A DNA stretch of 64,000 bases. Origin: Methanomicrobium sp. W14. Its GTDB lineage: Archaea > Halobacteriota > Methanomicrobia > Methanomicrobiales > Methanomicrobiaceae. Shown piece after piece: positions 48,977-64,000 of this stretch; position 1 is the stretch's first letter; each line of letters starts with the position of its first letter. Below the pieces are notes generated by a model. That model was not told the origin of the DNA, made no database searches, and worked only from the letters and a program-made list of their open reading frames with translations. The stretch is from positions 248,001 through 312,000 of the forward strand of contig NZ_JAGGMM010000003.1 of NCBI RefSeq assembly GCF_017875315.1, written 5' to 3'. The position numbers and the translations under genes were made by a program.

Positions 48977-50220
48977 TTAATACGTACCGTACTTCTTTAC
49001 GGCGTCTGTTAAAGCCCTGACATTTTCAGGTTTTGAAGCTCCGGATATTCCACCTCCGTCGACACCCGGGAAGACAATGAAGCCGCCGTCTTTACAGTCG
49101 GTAAGAAGACTCTTCATGTAATCATCCATCTTCTGCGGCGTCCCTCCTATCAGAAGAGAGCTTGAAGGCCCTCTAAAGAGAATAATGTGGTCGTCAAGGA
49201 CTTCCCTTACCTTCCTCGGGTCGGTCTTGTCAAAAATACCAATGACCTTGCCCTTCGGGAGCTCGAGAAGTTTTTCAAGATGTGCATCGTGCCTGCCCTC
49301 AAAGAAAACATACGGTGTCTGTCCCATCTTAATTACCTCCTCAAGGACTTTTTTAAGTGAAGGCCAGTAGAACTCGTCATACTGTTTCGGATTTAAGTAT
49401 TCGTTCAAGTGAAGCGGGAAGAAGCACTCGACAATGTTCGTTCCGAGAGCTTCTTTCAGTTCAGGAGGAAGTGTCCCGGTAATTCTTGCCGAATCTATGA
49501 ATTACGGTGTTACTGCATCGGTTGCCGCTTTAACCTTGTCCTTCCTCCTGTAGATATCAAGAACAATATTCTGTATATTTCTCAGGTCGTCGCTTATGAA
49601 ATCAAGCGGTGCATAGCTATCATTGGAATGGACGGGAGGCTGCACTCCTGCGCAAGCGACATGATAAGGTCGGTCACTGCATTGCCGTATTTTTCAAGCT
49701 CTGCACCGTATTTTGTCAGGGTCGCACCTGCCTCGACAGAACCGGGGTTTGCAAGGCCTTTGCAGATTCTGGGAACAGCCTCGTTGCACACGAAACCAAG
49801 CGGGTCAGCTATGAATTTATCATACTCGTCCACCTTCATGATTTCACTGCCGATAAACTGCGGGTGCAGGTCATCTTCAAGCTCAATACCAGGCCATTTC
49901 GTGAAAACGTCACCGAGAAGCTTGTGGAACCTTGCCGAAGGAACAAGTTCAGGTGCGTTCTTCATCAGGTAAAAACTCATGAACGAGGCTTCAAGTCCGG
50001 TCACGACACCAAGGGAATCAAAATCGAAATCTTTGCCGACCTTAACAGCCGCCTGGCGGTTCTTTTCATAGTCAAAGAAGATATCTTTTGCAGTATAGCC
50101 GGAATAGTGCGCATGGAAAAGGATAACAAGGGATGTCACCGGGACTCTGTCAGGAGTTTTGCAGTTTATTTTATCCTCTATCCTTGCAAGCCTCTCACGG
50201 AACAGTTCACTGTGTTCCAT
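48977..50220 (-). pseudogene. UroD-superfamily methyltransferase, inactivated (frameshift and stop)
   Basis: Read through, this is a full-length member of the array's methyltransferase family (about 415 residues), from MEHSELFRERLARIEDKINC to RALTDAVKKYGTY. Two lesions break it: near 49605-49625 one base is missing (PSIP... should continue SYAPLDFISD), leading to TAA at 49594; and a tyrosine codon has become TAA at 49502-49504, in TP-stop-FIDSARITG where paralogues have TPYFIE. The last 143 codons are open and little altered, so decay is recent. Closest in wording to the gene at 61158 (LELPKGKVIGIFDKTDPRKVREVLDDH). Confidence 0.85.
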
Positions 50221-50225
50221 AATTA

Positions 50226-50795
50226 TCACGCCCCCACAAGCTTTCTGAACTTCTTTACACCCGATGTTGCATCATCCGACCATTCGTCGGCACCGGTGTA
50301 CTTCATGGTCTCTTTGTCTGTCCTTCCGCCGCCTACGACAATCTTTACCTTGTCGCGAAGACCGGCTTCCTTTATCTTCTCGACAATATTCTTCATTGAC
50401 TCGGTGGCTTCGGTCAGAAGTCCGCTTAATGCAACGATGTCAGGGTTGTTCTCCCTGATTGCGTTGATATATGAATCAGCAGGCTGGTCCACTCCAAGGT
50501 CTATGACCTTAAAGCCCTCAGCTTCAAGAAGAGCTATGATGATGTTCTTTCCGATGTCGTGAACATCTCCCTCGACAGTTCAGATAACAACTGTTCCGAT
50601 GTTCTCCATCTGGCTGTCGCCGAATACAGGCTTTAAAACATCCATAATCTGCGAAAGGATTTCACCTGTCATCATAAGGTCTGAAACAAAGAACCTTCCT
50701 TCCTCAAATCTTTTACATACGATATCCGTGGCTTTCCTTACATCCTCAATTATGAGTTTTGGGTCTTCCTTGGCTGCAATTCTCTGGTTTAAAAT
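50226..50795 (-). pseudogene. Corrinoid protein, 5'-truncated and with an in-frame TGA
   Basis: Homology to the 212-residue corrinoid proteins of the array begins at ILNQRIAAKEDPKLIIEDVRKATDIV (residue ~23 of intact copies) and runs to FRKLVGA. The first ~22 codons are replaced by unrelated AT-rich sequence. At 50580-50582 a GGA glycine codon (Gly94 of intact copies, GTVVI-G-TVEGD) has become TGA. The cobalamin motif DVHDIG is otherwise kept. It precedes the broken methyltransferase gene with the usual tight spacing, so the whole module is dead. No promoter/hairpin like those of the other modules is found upstream. Confidence 0.85.
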
Positions 50796-51000
50796 ATATG
50801 CCTTCTGCAACAAAAAAACGAAAAAATCCACAAAATTTTTGCAACAAAAAAGTTTAAAGGAGATCTTTTGGCAGACGTACTGAAAGTACATTAATTCTTA
50901 TGTGACGAATGAAAGAGCAAACCAGAAAAGTTCTGATTAAAAAGGTTTAATATAATAAGATATTCAGAATTCCTTTTTTAAATCATTAAATACGAAAACA

Positions 51001-51020
51001 ATCTGGAATGATTTCCAGAT
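51001..51020 (-). terminator. Inverted repeat downstream of the solo corrinoid gene
   Basis: ATCTGGAA and TTCCAGAT form a perfect eight-pair stem around TGAT, 15-34 nt after the stop codon of the corrinoid gene at 51035. On the minus strand a T-rich stretch (TGTTTTCG) follows. Likely a transcript end. Confidence 0.5.
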
Positions 51021-51034
51021 AGAATATACTTTTT

Positions 51035-51679
51035 TCAGACCTGCTTTTTATCCAGGAGCCTTTTAAATTTTCCAACGCCTGAAGTTGCATCATATGACCA
51101 TTCGTCGGCGCCTGTGTACTTCATGGTCTCTTCGTCCGTCCTTCCGCCACCTACGACAATCTTTACCTTGTCGCGAAGACCGGCTTTTTTTATTTCGTTT
51201 ATTATATTTTTCATGGACTCGGAGGCCTCGGTTAAAAGTCCGCTCAGTGCAACGATATCGGGATGGTACTCCCTGATGGCATTTATATATGACTCGGGGG
51301 GCTGGTTAACACCTAAATCGATGACCCTGAAACCTTCCGTCTCAAGAAGAGCTATAACTATACTCTTTCCGATATCATGGACATCACCTTCTACAGTACC
51401 TATAACTACAGTCCCTATGATTTTTTCACGCCTTACACTTAAAACAGGGTTTAAAACCTCCATTATCTGTGAAAGCACTTCACCAGCCATCATAAGGTCT
51501 GACACAAGGTAGTCACCGTCCTCAAACCTCTTTCCGACAATTCCCGTAGCTTTCCTTATGTCCTCAATTATATTCTCCAGATCCTCATCGTCAGCAATTC
51601 TTTTCTTCAGAATATTAATGCACTTCAGCTCATCAAAATCAACAATTGCATTTATGAATTCATCTCTTCTGTCTGTCAT
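51035..51679 (-). CDS. Corrinoid (methyl-carrier) protein, solo copy
   Basis: A 214-residue corrinoid protein of the MtaC/MtvC-like type. Residues 1-85 are the helical cap; the cobalamin motif is Asp99-x-His101-x2-Gly104 (EGDVHDIGKSI), Ser146-x-Leu148 (LSGLLT) and GGG near 177-179. It diverges more than the other copies (e.g. NPVLSVRREK for KPVFGDSQME, a KKQV tail) and has no methyltransferase directly behind it; the next genes are the dead module. His101 is expected to ligate cobalt. It could serve a partner encoded elsewhere or in trans in this array. Confidence 0.88.
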   Translation of the reverse strand: MTDRRDEFINAIVDFDELKCINILKKRIADDEDLENIIEDIRKATGIVGKRFEDGDYLVSDLMMAGEVLSQIMEVLNPVLSVRREKIIGTVVIGTVEGDVHDIGKSIVIALLETEGFRVIDLGVNQPPESYINAIREYHPDIVALSGLLTEASESMKNIINEIKKAGLRDKVKIVVGGGRTDEETMKYTGADEWSYDATSGVGKFKRLLDKKQV

Positions 51680-51704
51680 TTTATAACCATTAACCCGCTC
51701 TCAG

Positions 51705-51718
51705 ACACACCAATGTGT
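51705..51718 (-). promoter_or_regulatory. Leader inverted repeat of the solo corrinoid gene
   Basis: ACACA and TGTGT pair around CCAA, 26-39 nt before the start codon. The arms have a different sequence from those of the other modules but the repeat occupies the same place, between a shared GATACCCAATT-like stretch and the GGTTA ribosome region. Confidence 0.55.
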
Positions 51719-51877
51719 ACCAATTGGGTATCTATAAAGGGTTATACTAATACTTTTTCCATAATAAAACCGGAATAAATAAGTTACACAAGAAATGTTG
51801 TATTAGAATAAGATTATTTTCATGGATATTGATGCTTTTTAAGCTTCTGTTCTGTGCAGTATATGTTGCTATCCAAA

Positions 51878-51905
51878 AATATATATATAAAAACCTTATG
51901 CGCCT
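51878..51905 (-). promoter_or_regulatory. GCGC-TATA promoter of the solo corrinoid gene
   Basis: On the minus strand GCGCATAAGG is followed by a TATA stretch (TTATATATATAT). GCGC begins 221 nt upstream of the start codon, against 211-214 nt in the other four modules. Predicted leader about 180 nt. From 51906 to 52131 I see no gene. Confidence 0.55.
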
Positions 51906-52131
51906 CACCTCTGAAAATGAGATTAAGCAAACAGATTTAACCGGAATAAAGCCTGAAAACTTAGATAAATCACTACATCGCCAAAAAAGAGAAGCTTGTT
52001 AAAAACAGAATTATCCAAAAAAGACCTTTTTCAAAAACGGGATCGAAATCACTGCAAATCTCTAATACCATTTTAACTATTCAACCTGATTTTATGCAAA
52101 AAATTAATGGAGGGAACTGCCCCCGCAACAT

Positions 52132-53331
52132 TCAGGATTTACTTTTTTCCTTTGGAAAAGGGTTGACAAAAACCGAAGCAAAAGCTCCGACTCCCAGAAG
52201 TACCATTCCGGCAAACAGAGGCATTGCAATGGCGTCGCCGGTGATGTTACCGATAAAATCAATCCAGTAGCCTGAAAGGAAGGCAAAAACTCCCATGCAA
52301 ACAGTCATTATAGACGTCGACTTTGCAACGACCTCCGGGTTTGCCATAACTCCTATTATCATAAGAACTCCCGGGTACATTATGGAAAATCCTGCCCCGG
52401 TCACGGCAATACCAAGTGCCACAATAACGACATTTCCTCCGTAAAACACAAGGCCAAGGCCTGCCGCCATGCAGAAGAGTGCAATTGAAATTATATACCT
52501 CCTGGTAATGCTTCTTGTCGAAAGACTACCGAAAAGAGCGCCTGCAATCATCCCTCCTATGGTGTAAAACGAAAGTACAATTCCTGCAACCGTTGAATCT
52601 CCAAGCGAATTTTCGGTCATAAAGCTTGACATATTAAGGAGCACAGGATACAAAAGGAGCAGTGCGATTCCGAAGGCTATTGATATCATCCACACTCCGG
52701 CAGGGACCTTGACCTTATCCTGCGATTCAGATGACCCCGTTTCACTTACAGACTTTTTCTGCGGTTCCGGCAGAAAAAGCAGGACCAAAACGAACGATGC
52801 TATTGCAAAGGCATGAGCCCAGAAACTGGCATGCCACCCGAAACTTGCGAAAAAACCCCCAAAGAACTGGAGGATGATTCCGCCGACATTCATTACTATG
52901 GTTCCTACGCCAAGCAGTTTCGCCTGCATATCACCTTCGTAAAAATTCAGTATCAGGGCACTTCCCAGAGGAGAAATCAGCCCGAGACCAAAACCGAAGA
53001 CTGCACGGTTAATAAGAATTACATAAAAATTATCGAGAAATACCGGAGCTATTCCTCCTATAATAAACAACAGAATTCCAAGAGCTGCAAGAGTCCTGTA
53101 CTTCATCTTTGACCCGGCTATTACACCCGCGATAACAGATCCTGGGATCATCAGAAGCGATGGGAGATTTGATATCAGGAGAAACGTACTGATGGAAAGG
53201 TCGGGGAATGCATCCATAATTACGTTAAGCGCAGGTGTGATAACTCCAAGTCCCATCATCAAAAAAAAGATTGACATTATCGTTATCACTACGACGGGTG
53301 AATCAGGATTAAATGCCTGAGATTTATCCAT
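52132..53331 (-). CDS. MFS transporter of the methyltransferase array (copy 1)
   Basis: A 399-residue protein with 12 predicted helices of the major facilitator superfamily. The inter-helix loop after helix 2 (AGSKMKYRTLAALGI) and the NRAVFGFGLGLISPLGSALIL helix are typical. It follows the methyltransferase gene by 13 nt, with GGAGG before its ATG, so it is in the same operon as 53345-54604. Uptake of the methylated substrate, or export of the demethylated product, is the natural inference. Its central loop carries a charged linker (EPQKKSVSETGSSESQDKVK). Confidence 0.83.
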   Translation of the reverse strand: MDKSQAFNPDSPVVVITIMSIFFLMMGLGVITPALNVIMDAFPDLSISTFLLISNLPSLLMIPGSVIAGVIAGSKMKYRTLAALGILLFIIGGIAPVFLDNFYVILINRAVFGFGLGLISPLGSALILNFYEGDMQAKLLGVGTIVMNVGGIILQFFGGFFASFGWHASFWAHAFAIASFVLVLLFLPEPQKKSVSETGSSESQDKVKVPAGVWMISIAFGIALLLLYPVLLNMSSFMTENSLGDSTVAGIVLSFYTIGGMIAGALFGSLSTRSITRRYIISIALFCMAAGLGLVFYGGNVVIVALGIAVTGAGFSIMYPGVLMIIGVMANPEVVAKSTSIMTVCMGVFAFLSGYWIDFIGNITGDAIAMPLFAGMVLLGVGAFASVFVNPFPKEKSKS

Positions 53332-53344
53332 TTCAAACGCCTCC

Positions 53345-54604
53345 TTAGTACCCGCCGTATTTTATTACTGCATCAACAAGGGCTTTTACGTTTTCAGGCT
53401 TCGCACTGCCGGAAATTCCTCCGTCTACACCGGGCGTTACTATCATTCCACCCTCTTTGCAGTCGTCCAGAAGGCTTTTTACGTAAGTTTCCACTTTCTG
53501 CGGTGTTCCGGCAATTAAAAGGGAGTTGGGCGGGCCGCTCACAAGGACGAGATGATCTCCCAGGACATCTCTTACCTTTCTCGGGTCGGTTTTGTCAAAC
53601 AGACCGATTACCTTTCCTTTAGGAAGGTCCAAAAGGCTCTCCAGGTGAGCGTCCTGCCTGCCTTCGAATACAACAAAAGGCGTCTGGCCCATCTTTATTA
53701 CTTCTTCAAGAACTTCGAGAAGCGAAGGCCAGAAATATTCATCGTAAAGCTTAGGGTTAAGATACTCATTCAGGTGAAGCGGAAACATGCACTGGACGAT
53801 ATCCGTTCCTGCCTGTTTTCTTACCTCCTCGGGAAAAGTCCCGGTGACTTTCGCGGACTCCACCATAACAGGTGTAAGAGCGTCTACTGCCACTTTGACC
53901 TTTTCAGGACACCTGTAGAGGTCAAGCGAGAGGTTTTTCATGTCCCTCAAAAAATCGCTGAGGAAATCAAGGGGTGCACTGCTCCATCCTGTCGGAATCA
54001 AAGGCACTTCATATTTGCCTGAAAGTTCAGCTGACATTTCTCCCATAACCATGTTGAACTTATTAATCTCGGCACCGAAACTGGTAAGAGCAGCGTTGTA
54101 TTCGGAAGAGCCCGGGTCATTTAAGGACCTGCATATTCTCGGGAGAAGAACCCTGTTGATGAAATCGTAAGGGTCCTCTGCAAGTTTTGCATATTCATCG
54201 GAGGACATTACCTCCCGGCCGATAAACTGGGGAGCTGCATCATCTTCTATCTCGATGCCGGGCCACCTTGTATAGACGTCATTCAGGATTTTATGAAAGG
54301 GAGCCTGCATCAGAGCGGCCGAGGGTGCTATCTGGGGTGCATCCTTCATCAGGGCAAGAAAACTGTAAAACCCCGCAACTCCTGTAATGCAGGCCAGAGT
54401 ATCAAAATTGAAGTCACGGGCGGTCTTTAGGGCCGCATCCTTGTTCTTCAGATAGTCAAGGGTGATGTCCTTTGCAGTATATCCCGCATAGTGTGCATGA
54501 AAAAGACTTGTTTCAGCATGAACCGGAACTCTGTCGGGCTCTTTTCCTTTTATTACGGCTTCAAGCCTCTCCAGCCTCTCCGTGTAAAGTTCACCGGGCT
54601 CCAT
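53345..54604 (-). CDS. UroD-superfamily methyltransferase (copy next to a lost corrinoid gene)
   Basis: A 419-residue protein of the uroporphyrinogen-decarboxylase superfamily, the fold shared by MtaA/MtbA and by several substrate:corrinoid methyltransferases. Family-wide blocks in this array: KEPDRVPVHAETSLFHAHYAGYTAKDI (N-terminus), EDDAAPQFIGREVMSSDEY, CMFPLHLNEYLNPKLYDEYFWPSL, VVFEGRQDAHLESLLDLPKGKVIGLFDKTDPRKVRDVLGDH and MIVTPGVDGGISGSAKPENVKAL. The MtaA-type His-x-Cys and later zinc-ligand Cys are absent. ATG 54604 (MEPGELYTERLERLEA) aligns with the other copies; the open frame runs 8 codons further up into the remnant of the corrinoid gene. Confidence 0.85.
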   Translation of the reverse strand: MEPGELYTERLERLEAVIKGKEPDRVPVHAETSLFHAHYAGYTAKDITLDYLKNKDAALKTARDFNFDTLACITGVAGFYSFLALMKDAPQIAPSAALMQAPFHKILNDVYTRWPGIEIEDDAAPQFIGREVMSSDEYAKLAEDPYDFINRVLLPRICRSLNDPGSSEYNAALTSFGAEINKFNMVMGEMSAELSGKYEVPLIPTGWSSAPLDFLSDFLRDMKNLSLDLYRCPEKVKVAVDALTPVMVESAKVTGTFPEEVRKQAGTDIVQCMFPLHLNEYLNPKLYDEYFWPSLLEVLEEVIKMGQTPFVVFEGRQDAHLESLLDLPKGKVIGLFDKTDPRKVRDVLGDHLVLVSGPPNSLLIAGTPQKVETYVKSLLDDCKEGGMIVTPGVDGGISGSAKPENVKALVDAVIKYGGY

Positions 54605-54605
54605 T

Positions 54606-54713
54606 TCAGACCACTTCCGGGTCATCAACAGTTTTTCGTATCTGTAATTCTGTGCACTGTGACTTAAAAAAGTCCAAAAAAGTATTTAGCAACTTTTTTC
54701 TTTTGTCTGTCAT
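54606..54713 (-). pseudogene. Remnant of a corrinoid gene: first 35 codons only
   Basis: The frame starts at ATG 54713 with MTDKRKKLLNTFLDFFKSQC and ends at TGA 54606. Intact neighbours start MTDKRKEFVDALIDFDESKC; shared residues include the first six, then Asp14, Phe15, Ser18, Cys20, Glu22 and Asp30. The promoter, leader hairpin and start region upstream match the other modules, but everything after codon ~33 of the corrinoid gene is gone and the methyltransferase follows 1 nt after the stop. Either a deletion relic or a short leader peptide still translated to couple the methyltransferase. Confidence 0.75.
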
Positions 54714-54728
54714 TAGTATAACCCCGTA

Positions 54729-54745
54729 CTCACCCCTAAGGTGAG
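54729..54745 (-). promoter_or_regulatory. Leader inverted repeat of the 53345 module
   Basis: CTCACC and GGTGAG pair around a five-base spacer, 16-32 nt upstream of the remnant's start codon. The arms are identical to those of the 58325 module. A GGGGTTA stretch, the probable ribosome site, follows on the minus strand. Confidence 0.6.
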
Positions 54746-54901
54746 ATAATTGGGTATCTATAATGAGTTTTACAAATAGTTTATCAGCAAAACTTATATA
54801 ATGAATTTATTTAGGCAACAATAGTTGTTGTATATAATTATTAATTTATTTTATATATGTTAACGGAGCATGATCCGCAGATATCGTTTGCCCATATACA
54901 T

Positions 54902-54930
54902 AAAAATAAATATGTCCAGGCATACGCGCT
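54902..54930 (-). promoter_or_regulatory. GCGC-TATA promoter of the 53345 module
   Basis: Minus strand: AAAGCGCGTATG, then TATA-like CATATTTATTTTTATG. GCGC begins 213 nt upstream of the start codon. Conservation here suggests the module is still transcribed although its corrinoid gene is lost. 54931-55176 holds no gene that I can see. Confidence 0.55.
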
Positions 54931-55176
54931 TTATTTTAGATAAATAATAGAATAAAAAGCATAATTAAATTTTTTAGGACTTTTTCTATGATATTAAGAA
55001 TAATTTTAATACACAACCATCTAAAAATCAGGTTTGATATATAAAAAGATTCATTTCAACAATATGGCGCACCAGATGACATAGAATCATATCACAGACA
55101 GTTTACAAAGAAATTTTTAAAAATATGCGCCACAGCCGGCACTCACAGAAAAAGTGTCATAAAAAGAGCAAATTAA

Positions 55177-56391
55177 TCAGGAAGATTCTCCTGACTTATT
55201 TGCAACGTCGTTTTTCGGGTACGGGTTGATGAATATCGAGATTACAGCACAGACAGCAACGATTACCATGCCCACGAACAATGGCATTGCAATTGCGTCC
55301 CCTGTCAGGTCACCGATTAACTCAATCCAGTATCCGGAAATGAACTCAAATATACCCATGCAGATTGTCATTATAGCTGTTGATTTGGCAAGAGCATCAG
55401 GTGTTACTATAAGGCCGATGAGCATCAGAACTCCGGGATACATCGTCGAGAAGCCTATACCAACAAACGATATACCGATAGTTACGAGGACAATGTTTCC
55501 TCCGTAGAGCACGAGGCCCAGACCTAAGGAAACAGCAAACATGGCGATTGTAAGAAGATACCTGCGTGTCGCCTTAAGCTTCGTCATTTTGCTGAATATA
55601 ACTCCCGCAATCATTCCGCCTACCGTGAAGAATGAAAGTACGATACCTGCAACAGCCGACCCTCCGAGAGAGTTGATATCCATAAACGTGGACATGTTCA
55701 GAAGGACAGGGTAGAGCATAAGGACAGTGAAACCCCATATAAGGGACAGGGCCCATACCGAAGACGGTACTCTGACTTTTTCCTTGGGCTTGTCGCCATT
55801 CTCTTCCTGGACTGATTTGTTTGGTTCAGGCAGAAAGAGCAGAACTAAAATGAACGATATTATTGCAAAAGCGTGGGCCCAGAAACTTGCGTGCCATCCG
55901 AAACTTGCGAAATATCCTCCGAAGAACTGGAGAACAATACCACCGATGTTCATGACGATTGTTCCCATTCCAAGCAGCCTTGCCTGCATTTCACCTTCAT
56001 ACAGACCAAGTATAAGGGCACTTCCAAGCGGGTACAGCATACCGATACCAAACCCGAATATGGCCCTGTTCAGAAGGATTACCGAGAAGTCGTCAAGGAA
56101 TACAGGAGCGATACCTCCGAGGGTAAACAGTGCAATACCGATAAGTGCAAGCACTTTGTATTTTACCTTGGTTCCGGCGATAGCACCGGCAATCATAGAC
56201 CCCGGTACAAGTATCAGCGACGGCAGCGTTGATATCAGGTAAAATGTACTTATAGAAAGGTCCGGAAACGCCTTCATTATAACGTCAAGAGCCGGTGTGA
56301 TTGTACCAAAACCCATCAGCAGGAAAAAGATTGACATTATCGTAATTATGACAAGCGGTGAATCAGGACTGAGTAATTTTGAATTAGCCAT
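55177..56391 (-). CDS. MFS transporter of the methyltransferase array (copy 2)
   Basis: A 404-residue, 12-helix MFS protein, a close paralogue of the 52132 product (both contain SFGWHASFWAHAFAI and GSALIL...YEG-MQA--LG-GTIVMN). ATG 56391 follows GGAGG; the frame is open five codons further upstream. It is 38 nt behind a methyltransferase gene, the third gene of the only complete three-gene module (corrinoid 57687, methyltransferase 56430, transporter). The charged central loop (NKSVQEENGDKPKEKVR) is the usual MFS midpoint. Substrate unknown; likely the methyl donor or its product. Confidence 0.84.
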   Translation of the reverse strand: MANSKLLSPDSPLVIITIMSIFFLLMGFGTITPALDVIMKAFPDLSISTFYLISTLPSLILVPGSMIAGAIAGTKVKYKVLALIGIALFTLGGIAPVFLDDFSVILLNRAIFGFGIGMLYPLGSALILGLYEGEMQARLLGMGTIVMNIGGIVLQFFGGYFASFGWHASFWAHAFAIISFILVLLFLPEPNKSVQEENGDKPKEKVRVPSSVWALSLIWGFTVLMLYPVLLNMSTFMDINSLGGSAVAGIVLSFFTVGGMIAGVIFSKMTKLKATRRYLLTIAMFAVSLGLGLVLYGGNIVLVTIGISFVGIGFSTMYPGVLMLIGLIVTPDALAKSTAIMTICMGIFEFISGYWIELIGDLTGDAIAMPLFVGMVIVAVCAVISIFINPYPKNDVANKSGESS

Positions 56392-56429
56392 TGTAAAAAC
56401 CTCCAATCTGAATTATGCAAACTATTTAT

Positions 56430-57686
56430 TCAGTACTTTCCATACTTGTGGACAGCCTCGATAAGGGCCTTCACGTTCTCGGGCTTGGCGCCTCCGGAGA
56501 TTCCTCCCTCAACACCAGGCGTAATTATCATTCCGCCTTCCTTGCAGTCGTCAAGCATACTCTTCATGTAATCATCCACTTTCTGGGGTGTTCCGCCAAT
56601 CAAAAGCGAATTCGGCGGGCCGCTCATGAGAATGATATGATCACCGACAGCTTCCCTGACTCTTCTCGGGTCTGTCTTGTCGAAGTAACCTACAAGTTTC
56701 TTTTTCGGAATGTCAAGAAGCGTCTCAAGGTGTGCATCATGCCTGCCTTCAAACATTACATAAGGCGTCTGTCCCATATCGATAACAGTTTTGAATACCT
56801 TCAGAAGGGAAGGCCAGTAATATTCGTTGTAAAGTTTCGGGTTGAGATATTCGTTTAAGTGCAGCGGGAAGAAGCACTTTATGAGGTCAGTTCCGCAGGC
56901 CTTCTGAACTTCAGGCGGGATATTTCCTGAAACCCTTGCCTCTTCGATGATAAGAGGCGTTGTCGCATCGATTGCCTCTTTGACTTTGTCGCCGTTTCTG
57001 TAGAAATCAAGAATCATGTTCTTTATGTCACGCAGAAAGTCGCTTATGAAGTCAAGAGGAGCGTAGCCGCTTGCCTGTGGTATAGAAGGATAGCCGCATT
57101 CGCCAAGTGCCATAAAAAGCTTCGCGTTGTCTTCGGATTTTTTCTGTACTGCAGCACCATACTCGGCCATAGCTCCGTTGTACTCCGGAGAGCCGGGGTC
57201 CTTTAAGGCTGAGCACATCCTCGGAAGTGCAGTCCCGTGAAGGAAGCCGAGAGGGTCTTCTATGTAACTGTCGTACTCGTCAGGCTTCATTATCTCCCGG
57301 CCGATAAACTGGGGGGAAGCGTCGTCTGAAAGCTCGATTCCGGGCCATTTCGTAAATACGTCCTTTAAAACACTGTGGAAAGGCGCCTCCATCATCCTGG
57401 TGGCAGGACCTATTGACGGAGCCGAGTTTATGAACGGTATGGTCATAAAAGAGCCGTCAAGTCCGATAAGCGGTGCAAAGGAATCAAAATCGAAGTCCTG
57501 ACCGGTTTTAACCGCAGCCTTTATATTAAGCTCAGGGTTGAGGATAACATCCTTTGATGTATACCCGCAATAATGGGCGTGAAACACATTTGTTGAAGCG
57601 ATTATAGGCACCCTGTCAGGCTCCTTTCCTTTCATAACAGCTTCAAGCCTTTCAAGCCTTTCACGGCGCAGTTCATCTGTATCCAT
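56430..57686 (-). CDS. UroD-superfamily methyltransferase (complete three-gene module)
   Basis: A 418-residue member of the array family. Blocks: KEPDRVPIIASTNVFHAHYCGYTSKDV, DDASPQFIGREIMKPDEYDSYIEDPLGFLHGTALPRMC, YAPLDFISDFLRDIKNMILDFYRNGDKVK, CFFPLHLNEYLNPKLYNEYYWPSL and VMFEGRHDAHLETLLDIPKKKLVGYFDKTDPRRVREAVGDH. The HxC/Cys zinc set of CoM methyltransferases is replaced (FEGRHDAH; PGVEGG). The start abuts the corrinoid stop with no gap; the ribosome site GGAGG is inside the corrinoid gene's last codons. It presumably moves a methyl group from a donor to the partner corrinoid. Confidence 0.87.
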   Translation of the reverse strand: MDTDELRRERLERLEAVMKGKEPDRVPIIASTNVFHAHYCGYTSKDVILNPELNIKAAVKTGQDFDFDSFAPLIGLDGSFMTIPFINSAPSIGPATRMMEAPFHSVLKDVFTKWPGIELSDDASPQFIGREIMKPDEYDSYIEDPLGFLHGTALPRMCSALKDPGSPEYNGAMAEYGAAVQKKSEDNAKLFMALGECGYPSIPQASGYAPLDFISDFLRDIKNMILDFYRNGDKVKEAIDATTPLIIEEARVSGNIPPEVQKACGTDLIKCFFPLHLNEYLNPKLYNEYYWPSLLKVFKTVIDMGQTPYVMFEGRHDAHLETLLDIPKKKLVGYFDKTDPRRVREAVGDHIILMSGPPNSLLIGGTPQKVDDYMKSMLDDCKEGGMIITPGVEGGISGGAKPENVKALIEAVHKYGKY

Positions 57687-58325
57687 TTAGTTCGCCTCCA
57701 CAAGCTTTCTGAACTTTTTTACACCCGATGTTGCATCGTCCGACCATTCGTCGGCACCGGTGTACTTCATGGTCTCTTCGTCTGTCCTTCCGCCGCCCAC
57801 TACAATCTTTACCTTGTCGCGAAGACCTGCTTCCGTAATCTTTTCGACAATGTTTTTCATGGACTCGGTAGCTTCGGTAAGAAGTCCGCTTAATGCGACG
57901 ATATCAGGTTTATTCTCCTGAATAGCCTTTATAAAGGCGTCTGCCGGCTGGTCTACGCCAAGGTCTACAACCTTAAAGCCTTCAGCCTCGAGAAGAGCTA
58001 TTATGATGTTCTTCCCGATGTCGTGTACATCTCCCTCGACTGTTCCTATGACAACAGTTCCGATACTCTCCATCTGGCTGTCGCCGAATACGGGCTTTAA
58101 AACCCCCATAATCTGCGAGAGTATCTCTCCGGTCATCATGAGATCGGAAACAAAGAACCTTCCTTCCTCAAATCTCTGACCTACAATGTCTGTAGCCTTT
58201 CTTACGTCTTCGATTATCAGTTTAGGGTCTTCCTTGTCTGCTATTCTCTGGTTTAGAATCTCAATGCATTTCGACTCATCAAAGTCGATTAACGCATCAA
58301 CGAATTCTTTTCTCTTGTCTGTCAT
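57687..58325 (-). CDS. Corrinoid (methyl-carrier) protein
   Basis: A 212-residue protein: helical cap (1-85), then the B12-binding Rossmann domain with Asp99-x-His101-x2-Gly104, Ser146-x-Leu148 and the Gly triplet at 177-179. This is the layout of MtaC/MtbC/MtvC carriers that hold methyl-Co(III). The frame is open to 58469, but the conserved MTDKRKEFVDALIDFDESKC start, the hairpin and the GGGGTTA upstream fix ATG 58325. It pairs with the methyltransferase at 56430. Confidence 0.92.
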   Translation of the reverse strand: MTDKRKEFVDALIDFDESKCIEILNQRIADKEDPKLIIEDVRKATDIVGQRFEEGRFFVSDLMMTGEILSQIMGVLKPVFGDSQMESIGTVVIGTVEGDVHDIGKNIIIALLEAEGFKVVDLGVDQPADAFIKAIQENKPDIVALSGLLTEATESMKNIVEKITEAGLRDKVKIVVGGGRTDEETMKYTGADEWSDDATSGVKKFRKLVEAN

Positions 58326-58340
58326 TAGTATAACCCCGCA

Positions 58341-58357
58341 CTCACCCCTAAGGTGAG
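58341..58357 (-). promoter_or_regulatory. Leader inverted repeat of the 58325 corrinoid gene
   Basis: CTCACC and GGTGAG pair around CCTAA, 16-32 nt upstream of the ATG, just ahead of GGGGTTATAC on the transcribed strand. It may hide or expose the ribosome site, or be an operator. Confidence 0.6.
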
Positions 58358-58509
58358 CTAAATTGGTCTCTCTTGAGAGTGGTATAAAATACTTATTAAA
58401 TGAAAAACGAAAAAAAAGGCAGATTTGACAATAAATTTTTCTATAAATCAAGTTTTCTTGAAATCTCAAAAAATTTGGGCTTATTTCTTGCAGATCGTAT
58501 GCCCCTATC

Positions 58510-58547
58510 TATAAAGTTATATACTGTATATTTGTGCGCTTTTTTGG
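58510..58547 (-). promoter_or_regulatory. GCGC-TATA promoter of the 58325 module
   Basis: Minus strand: CCAAAAAAGCGCACAAATAT, then a TATA box CAGTATATAAC. GCGC begins 211 nt from the ATG. Predicted leader about 170 nt. The remaining interval to 58739 holds only the terminator at 58679-58698. Confidence 0.6.
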
Positions 58548-58678
58548 CTAAAAGACGTGACAAATCAGATTATCTAAATATTATGAACAAAAAAAACGAT
58601 GACAATTTAATCAGATTAAAATACCACAATAAAAATGCCGTAAGCTACATTTCAGGAGCATAAAGCCATGAGAGTCGG

Positions 58679-58698
58679 GGGGATTTTAAAAAATCCCC
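58679..58698 (-). terminator. Hairpin after the 58740 methyltransferase gene
   Basis: GGGGATTTT and AAAATCCCC form a nine-pair stem with a two-base loop, about 42-61 nt downstream of the methyltransferase stop codon on the minus strand. It separates this module from the promoter of the next one. Confidence 0.6.
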
Positions 58699-58739
58699 TT
58701 TAGAGAAGAAAATGTATTTATGTGGAGTGACTATCCAGT

Positions 58740-59996
58740 TCAGTATTTCCCGTATTTGTGAACAGCCTCTACAAGAGCTTTTACGTTTTCAGGTTTTGCA
58801 TCTCCGGAGATTCCTCCGTCTACTCCGGGCGTTATAATCATACCGCCCTCCTTGCAGTCTTCAAGCATGCTCTTGATATAATCGTCCACCTTCTGGGGTG
58901 TTCCTCCGATGAGAAGTGAGTTCGGCGGGCCGGTCATCAGTATCACGTGGTCACCGACTGCTTCCCTGACTTTTCTCGGGTCAGTTTTATCAAAGAAACC
59001 GATAAGCTTCTTTTTCGGGATGTCAAGCAAAGTCTCGAGGTGGGCATCGTGCCTTCCCTCAAAGATTACATAAGGTGTCTGGCCCATGTCTATGACTGTC
59101 TTGAATACCTTCAGAAGGGAAGGCCAGTAGAACTCCTTGTAAAGCTTCGGGTTTAAGTATTCGTTTAAGTGAAGAGGGAAAAAGCACTCGACTATATCAG
59201 TCCCGAACGCTTTTTTGGCTTCGGGAGGAATGTTCCCGGAAACTTTTGCGGACTCTATCATAAGAGGAGTCGTTACATCAACCGCTTTTTTCACCACATC
59301 GCCATTTCTGTAGAAATCAAGAACAATGTTTTTGATATCACGCAGAAAGTCGCTTATAAAGTCCAGCGGTGCATAGCTGTTTGCGGATGGTATCAGGGGA
59401 TAACCGCACTCTCCAAGCGCCTGGAAAAGCTTTGCCGACGCTTCAGAGTTTTTCTGCACTTCAGCACCGAATTCCGCCATGGCCCCGTTGTACTCGGGGG
59501 ACCCCGGATTTTTTAAGGCCTGGCACATTCTCGGAAGTGCAGTCCTGTGCAGAAAGCCTACCGGGTCTTCAATGTAGTCGCCGTACTCGTTAAGCTTCAT
59601 TACCTCTTTTCCGATAAACTGTGGCGAGGCGTCGTCAGAAAGCTCCATTCCGGGCCATTTGGTGAAGTCGTCCTTTAAGACCTTGTGAAATGAGGCCTGC
59701 ATAAACCTGGTGGAAGGCCCGAAAGAGGGCGAAGAGCACGTAAAAGGTATACTCAGAAATGACCCTTCTAGTCCCACAAGAGGGGCGAAAGAATCAAAGT
59801 CAAAGTCTTTGGCTGTTTTTACTGCTGCTTTCACGTTCAGTTCGGGATTGTGGATGATGTCTTTTGAGGTGTAGCCTGCATAATGAGCATGAAACACGCT
59901 CGTTGAAACAAGTACAGGAACCCTGTCAGGCTCTTTTCCCTTAATAACCGTTTCAATTCTTTCAAGCCTTTCGCGACGTAGTTCGTCTGCATCCAT
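58740..59996 (-). CDS. UroD-superfamily methyltransferase (two-gene module)
   Basis: A 418-residue paralogue, the closest relative of the 56430 product over its whole length (KAAVKTAKDFDFDSFAPLVGLEGSF, TKWPGMELSDDASPQFIGKEVMK, VIFEGRHDAHLETLLDIPKKKLIGFFDKTDPRKVREAVGDH). Differences cluster in the N-terminal half around residues 75-110 (SFLSIPFTCSSPSFGPSTRFMQASFHKVLKDDF), which could line the donor pocket. It starts 1 nt after the corrinoid stop (59998) and has no transporter behind it; a terminator follows. Confidence 0.87.
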   Translation of the reverse strand: MDADELRRERLERIETVIKGKEPDRVPVLVSTSVFHAHYAGYTSKDIIHNPELNVKAAVKTAKDFDFDSFAPLVGLEGSFLSIPFTCSSPSFGPSTRFMQASFHKVLKDDFTKWPGMELSDDASPQFIGKEVMKLNEYGDYIEDPVGFLHRTALPRMCQALKNPGSPEYNGAMAEFGAEVQKNSEASAKLFQALGECGYPLIPSANSYAPLDFISDFLRDIKNIVLDFYRNGDVVKKAVDVTTPLMIESAKVSGNIPPEAKKAFGTDIVECFFPLHLNEYLNPKLYKEFYWPSLLKVFKTVIDMGQTPYVIFEGRHDAHLETLLDIPKKKLIGFFDKTDPRKVREAVGDHVILMTGPPNSLLIGGTPQKVDDYIKSMLEDCKEGGMIITPGVDGGISGDAKPENVKALVEAVHKYGKY

Positions 59997-59997
59997 T

Positions 59998-60636
59998 TTA
60001 GTTCGCCTCCACGAGTTTTCTGAATTTCTTTACACCTGACGTTGCGTCGTCCGACCACTCGTCGGCACCTGTGTATTTCATGGTCTCTTCGTCTGTCCTT
60101 CCGCCGCCAACGACAATCTTTACCTTGTCGCGAAGACCTGCTTCCGTTATCTTTTCGACAATGTTCTTCATGGACTCGGTAGCTTCCGTTAAAAGACCGC
60201 TCAGAGCAACTATATCGGGGTTGTTCTCCTTAATGGCCTTAATGAACGCGTCTGCGGGCTGGTCTACGCCAAGGTCTATGACTTTGAAGCCTTCAGCCTC
60301 TAGAAGGGCTATGATGATGTTCTTTCCGATGTCGTGGACATCTCCCTCGACTGTTCCGATGACAACTGTCCCAATGTTTTCCATCTGGCTGTCGCCGAAT
60401 ACTGGCTTTAAAACCTCCATAATCTGCGAGAGTATCTCTCCGGTCATCATGAGGTCCGAAACAAAGAACCTCCCTTCCTCAAATCTCTGGCCTACAATGT
60501 CTGTAGCCTTTCTTACGTCTTCGATTATAAGTTTAGGGTCCTCTTTGTCTGCAATTCTCTGGTTTAAAATATCCATGCACTTCGACTCGTCAAAGTCGAT
60601 GAGTGCATCGACGAATTCCTTTCTTTTGTCTGTCAT
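59998..60636 (-). CDS. Corrinoid (methyl-carrier) protein
   Basis: A 212-residue corrinoid protein nearly identical to the copies at 57687 and 62419; changes are conservative (e.g. CMDILNQR, KENNPDIV). The cobalamin motif Asp99-x-His101-x2-Gly104, Ser146 and the Gly triplet are intact. Its partner at 58740 begins 1 nt later. The near-identity of carriers, against more diverse methyltransferases, suggests interchangeable carriers or gene conversion. Confidence 0.92.
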   Translation of the reverse strand: MTDKRKEFVDALIDFDESKCMDILNQRIADKEDPKLIIEDVRKATDIVGQRFEEGRFFVSDLMMTGEILSQIMEVLKPVFGDSQMENIGTVVIGTVEGDVHDIGKNIIIALLEAEGFKVIDLGVDQPADAFIKAIKENNPDIVALSGLLTEATESMKNIVEKITEAGLRDKVKIVVGGGRTDEETMKYTGADEWSDDATSGVKKFRKLVEAN

Positions 60637-60651
60637 TAGTGTAACCCCGGT

Positions 60652-60669
60652 CTCACAAGTAACTGTGAG
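60652..60669 (-). promoter_or_regulatory. Leader inverted repeat of the 60636 corrinoid gene
   Basis: CTCACA and TGTGAG pair around AGTAAC, 16-33 nt upstream of the ATG. The last pair of the arm changed from C:G to A:T on both sides relative to the 58341 copy. Confidence 0.6.
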
Positions 60670-60826
60670 GTAATTTGCTCTCTATAAACCGCCGTACTAA
60701 TACTTTTCCTACAAAACAGACAGAATAAACCACACAATACAAAAGATATGGATTTAAGTAAATATTATCTAATAACAAACAGCACATCCAAGCCAGAATC
60801 ATTGAGATCATTTGCCGCTACCAAAA

Positions 60827-60861
60827 TATCTATATACGGATACATCTGTGCGCTTTTTTGG
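60827..60861 (-). promoter_or_regulatory. GCGC-TATA promoter of the 60636 module
   Basis: Minus strand: CCAAAAAAGCGCACAGATG, then TATA box CGTATATAGATA. GCGC begins 214 nt upstream of the ATG. Predicted leader about 172 nt. 60862-61157 shows no gene. Confidence 0.6.
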
Positions 60862-61157
60862 TAAATCAGGTGGGATTTCGTTTTCACCAGGATTTCAACC
60901 TGAAAATACCTGATCAGATACGTAATATTAAAAGCAGTAGTAAAAGTCAGATATAACATTTTTGAGCGTGCAGGAGCAGAATATATTAAATAAACAGTAG
61001 AGGTAATTCAAAAAAAATAAATTTAAAAATTACAGCCACTGCTAATATCCCGGCAAAAACACTGTTTTCAGGCGAAGCCAGCCTAAAAACCAGAACAAAG
61101 TTATATCTGAAGAGAAATTATTCCCTTCAGGCATATGGTTTTTTTATTTTGGTTTAT

Positions 61158-62417
61158 TTAGTATGTACCGTACTTCTTTACTGCCTCAATAAGAGCTTTT
61201 ACGTTTTCGGGCTTTGCATTTCCGGATATTCCACCGTCAACACCGGGGAAAACTATCATTCCGCCGTCTTTGCAGTCGTCAAGCATACTCTTCATATAAC
61301 TGTCGACCTTCTGGGGAGTTCCTCCTATAAGAAGCGAGTTTGGAGGCCCGTATGCAAGGACTACATGGTCATCAAGGACTTCACGGACTTTTCTCGGGTC
61401 TGTCTTGTCGAATACACCGATGACTTTTCCTTTCGGAAGCTCAAGAAGCGTCTCGAGATGGGCATCATGCCTGCCCTCGAAGAGGACATAAGGAGTCTGC
61501 CCCATCTTTATCACTTCTTCAAACACTTTCCTCAGAGACGGCCAGTAATACTCGTCGTAAAGCCTTGGGTTCAGGTACTCGTTTAAGTGCAGCGGGAAGA
61601 AGCACTCCACAATATCCGTTCCGGCGGCTTTCTGCACTTCAGGCGGAATTGCACCGGTAACTTTTGCACATTCTATAAAGTAAGGTGTCAGTGCGTCAAC
61701 GGCAGCTTTTACCTTGTCCCCGTGCCTGTAGAAATCAAGAACCACATGCTTAATGTCACGCATAAAGTCCCCGACAAAATCAAGAGGTGCGTAGCTCCAG
61801 CCCATGGGAAGAGTAGGAACACCGTACTGGCCTGCAAGAGACTGAACGAGGTCCGTCTGGAAAGCGCCTGATTTTGCAAGTTCTGCCTTATAACCGGAAA
61901 GAGCAGCATCTGCCTTTGGAGAACCGGGATTTGCAAGATTTTTGCATATTCTGGGGAGTGCAACCGAGTTCAGAAATCCAATAGGGTCTGCTATGAACTG
62001 GTCATACTCGTCAAGCTTCATAATCTCTGACCCGATGAACTGCGGGTGTGCATCATCCTCAAGTTCGATGCCCGGCCATTTGGTAAAGACATCACCAAGT
62101 ATCTGGTGGTAATTTCCAAGCATGAACTTCGCAGGCGGGACAAGTTCAGGTGAACTTTTAAGGAGGCTTAAACCCATGAATGTCGCATCAAGGCCACCTA
62201 TGGCAGAGATACTGTCCATGTCAAAGTCTTTTGCAACTTTCAGAATGGCCTTTTTGTTTTTTTCCGGATTAAAAAATATCTCCTTTGCAGTATATCCGGA
62301 ATAGTGCGCCTGAAACAGCGTCATAAGGCCCAGTACAGGTGTCCGGTCAGGAGTTTTTCCTTTGATGACGTTGTCAAGCCTTGTAATCTTCTCTTTATAT
62401 ACTTCTTTTGCGTCCAT
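61158..62417 (-). CDS. UroD-superfamily methyltransferase (two-gene module)
   Basis: A 419-residue paralogue with its own subgroup signatures: TPDRTPVLGLMTLFQAHYSGYTAKEIFF, SAIGGLDATFMGLSLLKSSPELVPPAKF and LELPKGKVIGVFDKTDPRKVREVLDDHVVLAYGPP. It is close to the dead copy at 48977 and to the partial copy at the right edge, so at least two methyltransferase subgroups exist in the array (this one, and the 56430/58740 one). I chose ATG 62417 (MDAKEVYKEK), 1 nt after the corrinoid stop; the open frame goes six codons further. No transporter follows. Confidence 0.87.
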   Translation of the reverse strand: MDAKEVYKEKITRLDNVIKGKTPDRTPVLGLMTLFQAHYSGYTAKEIFFNPEKNKKAILKVAKDFDMDSISAIGGLDATFMGLSLLKSSPELVPPAKFMLGNYHQILGDVFTKWPGIELEDDAHPQFIGSEIMKLDEYDQFIADPIGFLNSVALPRICKNLANPGSPKADAALSGYKAELAKSGAFQTDLVQSLAGQYGVPTLPMGWSYAPLDFVGDFMRDIKHVVLDFYRHGDKVKAAVDALTPYFIECAKVTGAIPPEVQKAAGTDIVECFFPLHLNEYLNPRLYDEYYWPSLRKVFEEVIKMGQTPYVLFEGRHDAHLETLLELPKGKVIGVFDKTDPRKVREVLDDHVVLAYGPPNSLLIGGTPQKVDSYMKSMLDDCKDGGMIVFPGVDGGISGNAKPENVKALIEAVKKYGTY

Positions 62418-62418
62418 T

Positions 62419-63057
62419 TTAGTCCGCCTCCACAAGCTTTCTGAACTTCTTTACACCTGACGTTGCGTCGTCCGACCATTCGTCGGCACCGGTGTACTTC
62501 ATGGTTTCTTCGTCTGTCCTTCCGCCGCCCACTACAATCTTTACCTTGTCGCGGAGACCTGCCTTTTTGATCTCTTCAATGATATTCTTCATGGACTCGG
62601 TAGCCTCGGTCAGAAGTCCACTTAACGCGACGATATCAGGTTTGTTCTCCTTAATGGCCTTAATGAACGCGTCTGCCGGCTGGTCCACACCAAGGTCTAT
62701 GACTTTGAAGCCTTCAGCCTCGAGAAGAGCTATGATAATGTTCTTTCCGATATCGTGGACATCTCCCTCGACTGTTCCGATGACAACTATCCCAATGTTT
62801 TCCATCTGGCTGTCGCCGAATACTGGCTTTAAAACCTCCATAATCTGCGACAGTATCTCTCCGGTCATCATGAGATCGGAGACAAAGAACCTTCCTTCCT
62901 CAAATCTCTGGCCTACAATATCTGTAGCCTTTCTTACGTCTTCGATTATCAGTTTAGGGTCCTCTTTGTCTGCAATTCTTTTATTTAAAATATCCATGCA
63001 CTTCGACTCGTCAAAGTCGATGAGTGCATCTACAAATTCCTTTCTTATATCTGTCAT
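62419..63057 (-). CDS. Corrinoid (methyl-carrier) protein
   Basis: A 212-residue corrinoid protein (MTDIRKEFVDALIDFDESKC start) with the intact Asp99-x-His101-x2-Gly104 motif, Ser146-x-Leu148 and the Gly triplet. It differs from the 59998 copy at few sites (GIVVIGTVEGD, NIIEEIKKAGLRD). First gene of the module with the methyltransferase at 61158. The upstream leader carries the perfect version of the inverted repeat. Confidence 0.92.
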   Translation of the reverse strand: MTDIRKEFVDALIDFDESKCMDILNKRIADKEDPKLIIEDVRKATDIVGQRFEEGRFFVSDLMMTGEILSQIMEVLKPVFGDSQMENIGIVVIGTVEGDVHDIGKNIIIALLEAEGFKVIDLGVDQPADAFIKAIKENKPDIVALSGLLTEATESMKNIIEEIKKAGLRDKVKIVVGGGRTDEETMKYTGADEWSDDATSGVKKFRKLVEAD

Positions 63058-63072
63058 TAGTATAACCCCGGT

Positions 63073-63090
63073 CTCACAGTTAACTGTGAG
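63073..63090 (-). promoter_or_regulatory. Leader inverted repeat of the 63057 corrinoid gene
   Basis: CTCACAGTTAACTGTGAG is a perfect 18-bp palindrome, 16-33 nt upstream of the ATG. It is the most symmetric copy in the array. Confidence 0.65.
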
Positions 63091-63240
63091 GTAATTTGCT
63101 CTCTATAAATGGTGATATTAATAGTTTTCCCGGAAAAACGCCTTAAAAAAAGAGAAAAACAAAAAAAATGTATATATTAAAACATTACTTAATCTAATTC
63201 CGGCAATCAGAGTCTTTTTCTTCAGTATACTATGCCTTGA

Positions 63241-63280
63241 TACATATAATTATATATGATATCCTATATGCGCTTTTTTC
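63241..63280 (-). promoter_or_regulatory. GCGC-TATA promoter of the 63057 module
   Basis: Minus strand: GGAAAAAAGCGCATATAGG, then a TATA-rich run (CATATATAATTATATG). GCGC begins 213 nt upstream of the ATG. Predicted leader about 170 nt. The rest of 63281-63704 is AT-rich and holds no gene that I can recognise. Confidence 0.6.
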
Positions 63281-63670
63281 CTGAAAAGATACATAATAGA
63301 TGGTTTTAACCCGTATCAGGACGCCTGAGAATATGTTTCAACAGATAAAATTAGAATCAGTCTTTAAACCAGGATATAACTGTATTTGACCTTACAAGAG
63401 TAAAAGGAGACAAAAAATCCGAAAAAAATAAAAAAACAAAACCAGAAAATGTAAAATAACTAAGAAACCGGAACGCTGCATTCAGGTGAACCTGGAATAA
63501 CTGACAAAAAAATACAGAAACAGATTATTTTAATTACATTTTTGAATATTTAAAAGAGGAACAAAAGCCTGCGGCTGTAAACATCACCAGAGCCGCATCA
63601 AAGCCAAACCCCTGCGAGACATGCCTAAATATCAAAATTGAAGGATTTAAACAAAGGAAAATATTATTTT

Positions 63671-63690
63671 AAAGGGATTTTCGTCCCTTT
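63671..63690 (-). terminator. Inverted repeat after the right-edge methyltransferase gene
   Basis: AAAGGGA and TCCCTTT pair around a six-base loop, 15-34 nt downstream of the stop codon on the minus strand. There is no clear T-run behind it, so it may be a 3'-end stabiliser as much as a terminator. Confidence 0.4.
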
Positions 63691-63704
63691 TGATATCAGT
63701 GTCT

Positions 63705-64000
63705 TTAGTATGTACCGTATTTCTTGACTGCATCAATTGCAGCACGGACGTTCTCAGGTTTTGCGTCTCCGGAGATTCCTCCGTCAACACCAAGGTAAAC
63801 AAGCATACCACCGTCCTTGCAGTCATCAAGCATGCTCTTCATGTAACTGTCGACCTTCTCAGGGGTTCCACCTATAAGCAGCGAGTTCGGAGCTCCGTAT
63901 GAAAGTATTACATGGTCGTCAATGACTTCCCTGACCTTTCTCGGGTCGGTCTTGTCGAACACACCGATAACCTTTCCTTTCGGGAGTTCAAGGAGTGACT
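63705..64000 (-). CDS. UroD-superfamily methyltransferase, C-terminal part (runs off the window)
   Basis: The last ~98 residues of another array methyltransferase: SLLELPKGKVIGVFDKTDPRKVREVIDDHVILSYGAPNSLLIGGTPEKVDSYMKSMLDDCKDGG, then MLVYLGVDGGISGDAKPENVRAAIDAVKKYGTY. The frame is open to the window edge. It belongs to the 61158 subgroup. Notable local change: VYLGVDGG for the usual V(F/T)PGVDGG. The array therefore continues to the right of the window. Confidence 0.88.
   Translation of the reverse strand, partial: SLLELPKGKVIGVFDKTDPRKVREVIDDHVILSYGAPNSLLIGGTPEKVDSYMKSMLDDCKDGGMLVYLGVDGGISGDAKPENVRAAIDAVKKYGTY

What the first reader, a model, noticed from the sequence alone, without database searches (positions are those of the whole stretch)
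48977..64000. Expanded array of corrinoid / UroD-superfamily methyltransferase modules in a probable Methanomicrobiales genome
Seen: six methyltransferase copies (one dead, one cut by the window edge), five corrinoid genes (one dead, one solo) plus one corrinoid remnant, and two MFS transporters, all on one strand in about 15 kb. Known: UroD-superfamily methyltransferases with small corrinoid proteins serve methylotrophic methanogenesis (MtaA/MtbA) or O-demethylation (MtvB/MtoB-like). Inference: a lineage usually described as hydrogenotrophic has a set of methyl-donor systems, with the transporters bringing in donors. No acceptor enzyme (CoM or H4MPT methyltransferase, or corrinoid activator) is in the window.
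Basis: partly seen in the sequence, partly recalled or inferred. Interest (0 to 1): 0.88.

Follow-up and report, generated by a model that had tools for sequence, protein, structure and literature searches.

The report
Expanded methoxydotrophy (mto) locus in methanogen
A methane-making archaeon from a group thought to live mainly on hydrogen and carbon dioxide carries an enlarged gene array, with five intact versions of an enzyme family that strips methyl groups, most likely from lignin-type methoxy compounds, for feeding into methane formation.

Summary
The window ends inside the sixth methyltransferase. The whole is an mtoA-mtoD-(mtoC-mtoB)n locus: MtrH-like corrinoid:H4MPT methyltransferase, activase, and corrinoid/UroD-fold modules, two with MFS transporters. 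The methyltransferases fall in a 100/100 clade with Archaeoglobus fulgidus MtoB (AF_0007; 56-60% identity), whose cluster is induced by 2-methoxyphenol. They are not HemE or MtaA/MtbA, and joining them to the chloromethane enzyme CdmB is rejected (AU p=0.001). Kurth et al. 2021 already listed Methanolacinia petrolearia as an mto carrier, so presence in Methanomicrobiales is known. New here: expansion from one copy (7 of 59 relatives) to five intact plus one dead; corrinoids far more conserved than their methyltransferases; a CTCAC..GTGAG leader hairpin before mtoC, shared across genera. Caveats: no substrate tested; the genome's only activase appears frameshifted in an A9 run (sequencing error or real). 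Most likely function: methoxydotrophic methyl transfer to H4MPT, then Mtr and Mcr to methane.

The parts
63705..64000 (-). mtoB copy MT0, 3' part; the gene continues to genome C3:312964 (window-equivalent 64964), 419 aa
   Evidence: 74% identical to the single Methanoplanus limicola copy
62419..63057 (-). mtoC copy C1 (corrinoid protein, 212 aa)
   Evidence: B12-binding and B12-binding_2 domains; 96% identical to C2
61158..62435 (-). mtoB copy MT1; start likely the ATG at 62417, 1 nt after C1
   Evidence: URO-D, 78.6 bits; tree
59998..60636 (-). mtoC copy C2
58740..59996 (-). mtoB copy MT2
57687..58325 (-). mtoC copy C3
56430..57686 (-). mtoB copy MT3 (82% identical to MT2)
55177..56406 (-). 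MFS transporter MFS3, 38 nt after MT3 when started at 56391
   Evidence: weak hits to the aromatic acid/H+ symport subfamily, far below cut-off; 43% to an MFS gene in Bacillota C-MT-MFS loci
54593..54713 (-). 5' remnant of an mtoC gene in front of MT4, with intact leader palindrome (3' limit approximate)
53345..54628 (-). mtoB copy MT4, the most diverged; start likely ATG 54604
52132..53331 (-). MFS transporter MFS4, 13 nt after MT4
   Evidence: MFS_1, 105 bits
51035..51679 (-). solo mtoC C5, diverged (74% to C1), no methyltransferase follows
50226..50891 (-). dead mtoC: lost 5' end and leader, in-frame TGA
48977..50229 (-). dead mtoB: one frameshift and one in-frame TAA; groups with MT0 and MT1
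63073..63090 (-). leader palindrome CTCACAGTTAACTGTGAG in front of C1
60652..60669 (-). leader palindrome in front of C2
58341..58357 (-). leader palindrome in front of C3
54729..54745 (-). leader palindrome in front of the mtoC remnant

Best explanation
This is an expanded mto (methoxydotrophy) locus. Each UroD-fold MtoB paralogue binds a methylated donor, most likely a methoxylated aromatic compound, and passes its methyl group to the Co(I) corrinoid of an MtoC protein, usually the one encoded directly before it. [quoted passage not shown] One shared RACo-type MtoD (C3:313813-315555) re-reduces oxidised MtoC. Methyl-H4MPT then enters the normal pathway through Mtr and Mcr to methane, using H2 or formate as reductant. 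Paralogy widens donor range while the near-invariant corrinoids keep the shared A and D partners; MFS proteins of two modules import the donor or export the product. Shown here: gene content, families, order, phylogeny, selection, and presence of mtr-mcr. Inferred: activity, donor, acceptor, donor differences between paralogues, transport, regulation.
For: Four-part set in one locus: MtrH paralogue (343 bits), RACo, and corrinoid-methyltransferase modules. The same compact order A-D-C-B occurs in Methanoplanus, Methanolacinia, Methanogenium, Methanofollis and Methanoregula relatives. MTs form a 100/100 clade with A. fulgidus AF_0007 and its relatives, 56-60% identical. AF_0006-AF_0013 is a cluster strongly induced on 2-methoxyphenol (PMC8359953), and Mto activity is shown for Methermicoccus, with an MtrH-like MtoA acting on H4F but not CoM (PMC8630106). 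The conserved motifs PLHLNEY and FEGxHDAHLE are shared with archaeal MtoB and differ in CdmB. No CoM route: no MtaB, no MttB, no second UroD methyltransferase. mcr-mtr operon present. Purifying selection on the paralogues.
Against: No substrate, transcript or growth evidence exists for this organism. The only activase in the genome reads out of frame at its first ~31 codons because of an A9 run. The locus carries two dead genes and a remnant. The MFS proteins did not match the A. fulgidus locus at E 1e-10. The biochemically tested Methermicoccus MtoB could not be put in the tree.
Confidence: 0.7

Rival explanations
1. Halomethane system: the MTs are Cdm-like chloromethane methyltransferases feeding H4MPT.
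For: CdmB is the only solved structure matched (E 5e-73); 30-35% identity; corrinoid chemistry would be the same.
Against: Grouping the window MTs with CdmB and its neighbour is rejected (lnL -74, AU p 0.0014); CdmB sits on a long separate branch and lacks the PLHLNEY/FEGxHDAHLE residues. CdmB is the best PDB hit because it is the only close relative solved.
Confidence: 0.08
2. Same machinery, other donors: one or more paralogues, above all the diverged MT2/MT3/MT4 group, use non-aromatic donors such as methoxylated aliphatics, methylated sulfur or nitrogen compounds, while MT0/MT1 keep the ancestral activity.
For: MT2-4 branch outside all single-copy Methanomicrobiales orthologues (96/96); MFS genes follow only MT3 and MT4; the UroD superfamily is known for switching donors (PMC13222342).
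Against: Monophyly of all window copies is not rejected (AU p 0.47 and 0.17), so MT2-4 may only be fast-evolving; divergence is spread over the protein much as among orthologues.
Confidence: 0.2
3. A decaying array with little present function: an activase frameshift, a dead C-MT pair, a remnant and an orphan corrinoid mark relaxed selection.
Against: Five MTs, five corrinoids (C0-C3, C5), two MFS genes and MtoA are all open, with dN/dS about 0.02-0.17; leader elements are kept in front of intact modules; the activase lesion is a single homopolymer position, typical of sequencing error.
Confidence: 0.1

Closest known systems
Archaeoglobus fulgidus mto cluster AF_0006-AF_0013 (PMC8359953)
   Same: Same four components; C-MT pairs followed by transporters; MTs 56-60%, corrinoid about 63%, MtoA 52% and MtoD 52% identical
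   Different: Two C-MT pairs instead of five intact MT copies; non-methanogen that oxidises the methyl group; A-D lie between the two pairs
Methermicoccus shengliensis MtoABCD (PMC8630106)
   Same: MtrH-like MtoA, UroD-type MtoB, corrinoid MtoC, RACo-like MtoD, MFS transporters; methyl to H4MPT in a methanogen
   Different: Two MtoB genes; a methylotroph that also has methanol and amine systems, which are absent here; its sequences could not be compared directly
Single-copy mtoADCB operons of other Methanomicrobiales (Methanolacinia petrolearia named in PMC8630106)
   Same: Same gene order; leader palindrome in most; best MT identity 66-74%
   Different: One MT, one corrinoid, no linked MFS of this type; here the C-MT module is multiplied
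CdmBCA of Acetobacterium dehalogenans (PMC13222342)
   Same: UroD-fold MT plus corrinoid protein; only solved structural homologue
   Different: Haloalkane-specific, separate clade, 30-35% identity
MtaA/MtbA/HemE
   Same: URO-D fold
   Different: Far below the curated cut-offs; acceptor is CoM, or function is decarboxylation

Membership tests
Mto (archaeal methoxydotrophy system) | UroD-superfamily MT in the archaeal MtoB clade | tested here: met
   100/100 clade with A. fulgidus AF_0007; Methermicoccus MtoB sequence not available
Mto (archaeal methoxydotrophy system) | Small corrinoid protein MtoC paired with MtoB | tested here: met
   C directly before MT, 0-6 nt gaps; C tree places all copies in the MtoC clade
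Mto (archaeal methoxydotrophy system) | MtrH-like MtoA distinct from the Mtr-complex MtrH | tested here: met
   second MtrH at C3:315653-316531, 33% to the canonical MtrH of the mtr operon, 52% to AF_0009
Mto (archaeal methoxydotrophy system) | RACo-type corrinoid activase MtoD | tested here: inconclusive
   RACo domains present but the first ~31 codons are out of frame at an A9 run
Mto (archaeal methoxydotrophy system) | Linked MFS transporters | tested here: met
   two MFS genes in the array; not the same subfamily as in A. fulgidus at E 1e-10
Mto (archaeal methoxydotrophy system) | O-demethylation of methoxyaromatics, induction by them, transfer to H4MPT | not testable with these tools
   needs enzyme assays or cultures
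Cdm (chloromethane system) | MT in the CdmB clade | tested here: not met
   AU p 0.0014 against it
MtaA/MtbA CoM methyltransferases | Score over family cut-off | tested here: not met
   at most 48 bits against cut-offs of 235-600
HemE uroporphyrinogen decarboxylase | Score over family cut-off | tested here: not met
   31-35 bits against 303

The most novel reading that the evidence does not exclude
A hydrogenotrophic methanogen with a multi-donor methyl platform: five selected MtoB paralogues with different donors, at least one of a new class (MT2/3/4), share one acceptor and one activator through near-identical corrinoid adaptors, each module switched by its own promoter and leader hairpin.
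Probability: 0.3. Interest if true: 0.68.

Novelty: new variant of a known kind. Interest (0 to 1): 0.5.

Why it matters
Methanomicrobiales are treated as CO2 reducers in methane budgets and isotope models. An expanded, selected mto locus in one of them makes methoxy-group methanogenesis in this order directly testable, links it to plant- and coal-derived matter, and gives five natural paralogues with one shared corrinoid partner set, a good system for learning what sets donor specificity in UroD-fold methyltransferases.

Tried and rejected
Chloromethane function from the best PDB hit: rejected by tree, AU test and motif comparison. CoM-linked methylotrophy: no MtaB, MttB or second UroD methyltransferase. 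A claim that paralogue divergence is concentrated in the substrate-channel half: the N-terminal half is more variable, but the ratio to the ortholog control is about 1.1-1.7 in every segment with no clear focus, so not claimed. A claim that MT2-4 are an ancient or imported lineage: not established, AU does not reject monophyly of all copies. A zinc-ligand spacing motif recalled from memory: no match in the four copies scanned (MT0-MT3; the script stopped before MT4 and the references), source not found, dropped. Methermicoccus MtoB: not found in the 393 phylum and 292 class genomes searched. Structure prediction was not run, because coordinates are not returned and sequence homology was already decisive. 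tRNA and Rfam scans of the window: nothing.
Full report
OBSERVATION. On the minus strand, in transcription order: MT0 (cut by the window edge), C1-MT1, C2-MT2, C3-MT3-MFS3, corrinoid remnant-MT4-MFS4, solo C5, dead C - dead MT. Within a pair the gap between corrinoid and methyltransferase genes is 0-6 nt; between modules 414-647 nt. The dead MT has a frameshift and a TAA; the dead corrinoid lost its 5' end and leader and has a TGA, so there are several independent lesions.

BEYOND THE WINDOW. The window is C3:248001-312000 of a 2.54-Mb, 6-contig, 99% complete genome. Past the edge come the 5' end of MT0, C0 (C3:312971-313609), a RACo-type activase (313813-315555) and an MtrH paralogue (315653-316531). 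It is the only RACo in the genome and one of two MtrH genes. The other MtrH sits in a normal mcr-mtr operon with two mtrA genes, a known mark of Methanomicrobiales and Methanococcales (PMC4632066, abstract). No MttB or MtaB gene was found, and the only URO-D hit elsewhere is a MetE-type synthase. All strong B12-binding matches lie in the array.

FAMILY. The only solved relative of the MTs is CdmB, a chloromethane methyltransferase (PMC13222342). That match reflects what has been crystallised, not function. A 59-protein maximum-likelihood tree puts the window MTs in a 100/100 clade with Archaeoglobaceae and Jordarchaeum proteins, including A. fulgidus AF_0007; CdmB is elsewhere, and forcing it together is rejected (p 0.0014). 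AF_0006 to AF_0013 were reported as MtoC, MtoB, MFS, MtoA, MtoD and MFS genes highly induced on 2-methoxyphenol (PMC8359953). In Methermicoccus the same four components were shown biochemically, with transfer to a folate analogue and not to CoM (PMC8630106). That paper also says that Methanolacinia petrolearia has the genes, so the trait in Methanomicrobiales is not new.

RELATIVES. Of 60 close genomes 8 carry the MT, the own one included: the other seven have one copy each (one split by a frameshift), and none of five same-genus genomes has it. Neighbourhoods show a compact A-D-C-B operon in all. An M3 peptidase gene flanks the locus here, in M. limicola and in both Methanogenium species, which suggests an old shared site.

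EXPANSION AND SELECTION. MT paralogues are about 61-82% identical; synonymous sites are near saturation and dN/dS is about 0.05-0.17 where it can be computed. Corrinoids C0-C3 are 92-97% identical with dN/dS 0.02-0.05. For C1, C2 and C3 synonymous differences (0.35-0.44 per site) are far fewer than for their neighbours MT1, MT2 and MT3 (0.71-0.74), so homogenisation between corrinoid genes is likely; C0-C1 (0.67) matches MT0-MT1 (0.66). The corrinoid tree unites all window copies (100/100), whereas MT2/3/4 fall outside the single-copy orthologues (96/96); but a single clade of window MTs is not rejected. My reading: the corrinoid is a constant adaptor to the shared MtoA and MtoD, and the MTs are free to diverge. 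Whether donors differ is inference.

LEADER. In front of C0, C1, C2, C3 and the remnant is a palindrome CTCAC-N6..8-GTGAG, about 12-17 nt before the start codon; a changed version stands before C5. The same element lies before mtoC in the Methanoplanus, two Methanolacinia, two Methanogenium and the G021 genomes, with a near-match in the Methanofollis genome. In the window the two spacings tested are found 4 times against 0.03-0.05 expected each. Elsewhere in the genome 7 scattered sites match the loose form, the same number as the reversed-pattern control gives over the whole genome, so these are probably chance. A conserved GAAAAnTATTnnTA box upstream looks like BRE/TATA, which would place the palindrome in the 5' leader as a hairpin next to the ribosome-binding site (RNA folds of the CTCAC form -11 to -15 kcal/mol, modest z about -1.8 to -2.0) or as an operator near the start site. 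Each module therefore probably has its own promoter; this is inference from sequence.

WEAK POINT. MtoD of relatives starts about 31 codons earlier; here those codons are interrupted by a frame change at nine A. As the sole activase this matters. A homopolymer sequencing error is the simplest reading, but slippage or loss is open.

VERDICT. A real, expanded, selected mto locus, most likely for methoxydotrophic methyl transfer to H4MPT; a new variant of a known system, with unknown donors for each paralogue.

Noticed in passing
genome C3 about 315,595-315,640 (L012, between 3556 and 3654): The only RACo/MtoD gene changes frame in an A9 run after its likely ATG; relatives read through with ~31 more N-terminal residues. 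Sequencing error, slippage or loss.
   Followed up: partly
window 54729, 58341, 60652, 63073; genome C3:313622: Conserved CTCAC..GTGAG palindrome in front of the mtoC modules, shared with other Methanomicrobiales genera; a changed palindrome before C5.
   Followed up: partly
window 57687-63057: C1, C2 and C3 are closer at synonymous sites than the methyltransferases beside them, pointing to gene conversion among corrinoid genes.
   Followed up: partly
L062 and L073 (JAAYKP010000020.1, Bacillota MAG AS10tlH2TH_59): A bacterial contig with at least ten related methyltransferases and many corrinoid genes in one row, a larger array of the same superfamily with unknown donors.
   Followed up: no
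window 52132-53331 and 55177-56406; L055, L058, L068: The two MFS proteins match (40-43%) MFS genes in Bacillota C-MT-MFS loci, not the A. fulgidus mto locus at E 1e-10.
   Followed up: partly
window 48259-48816: Small SAM-methyltransferase at the 3' end of the array, with a weak hit to corrinoid protein-associated methyltransferase CpaM; a 51% homologue lies near the mto locus of Methanoplanus limicola (L031 15324-15866).
   Followed up: partly
G004:C1:454078-454827: A same-genus genome has a distant RACo (E 1e-54) but no MtoB-type gene.
   Followed up: no
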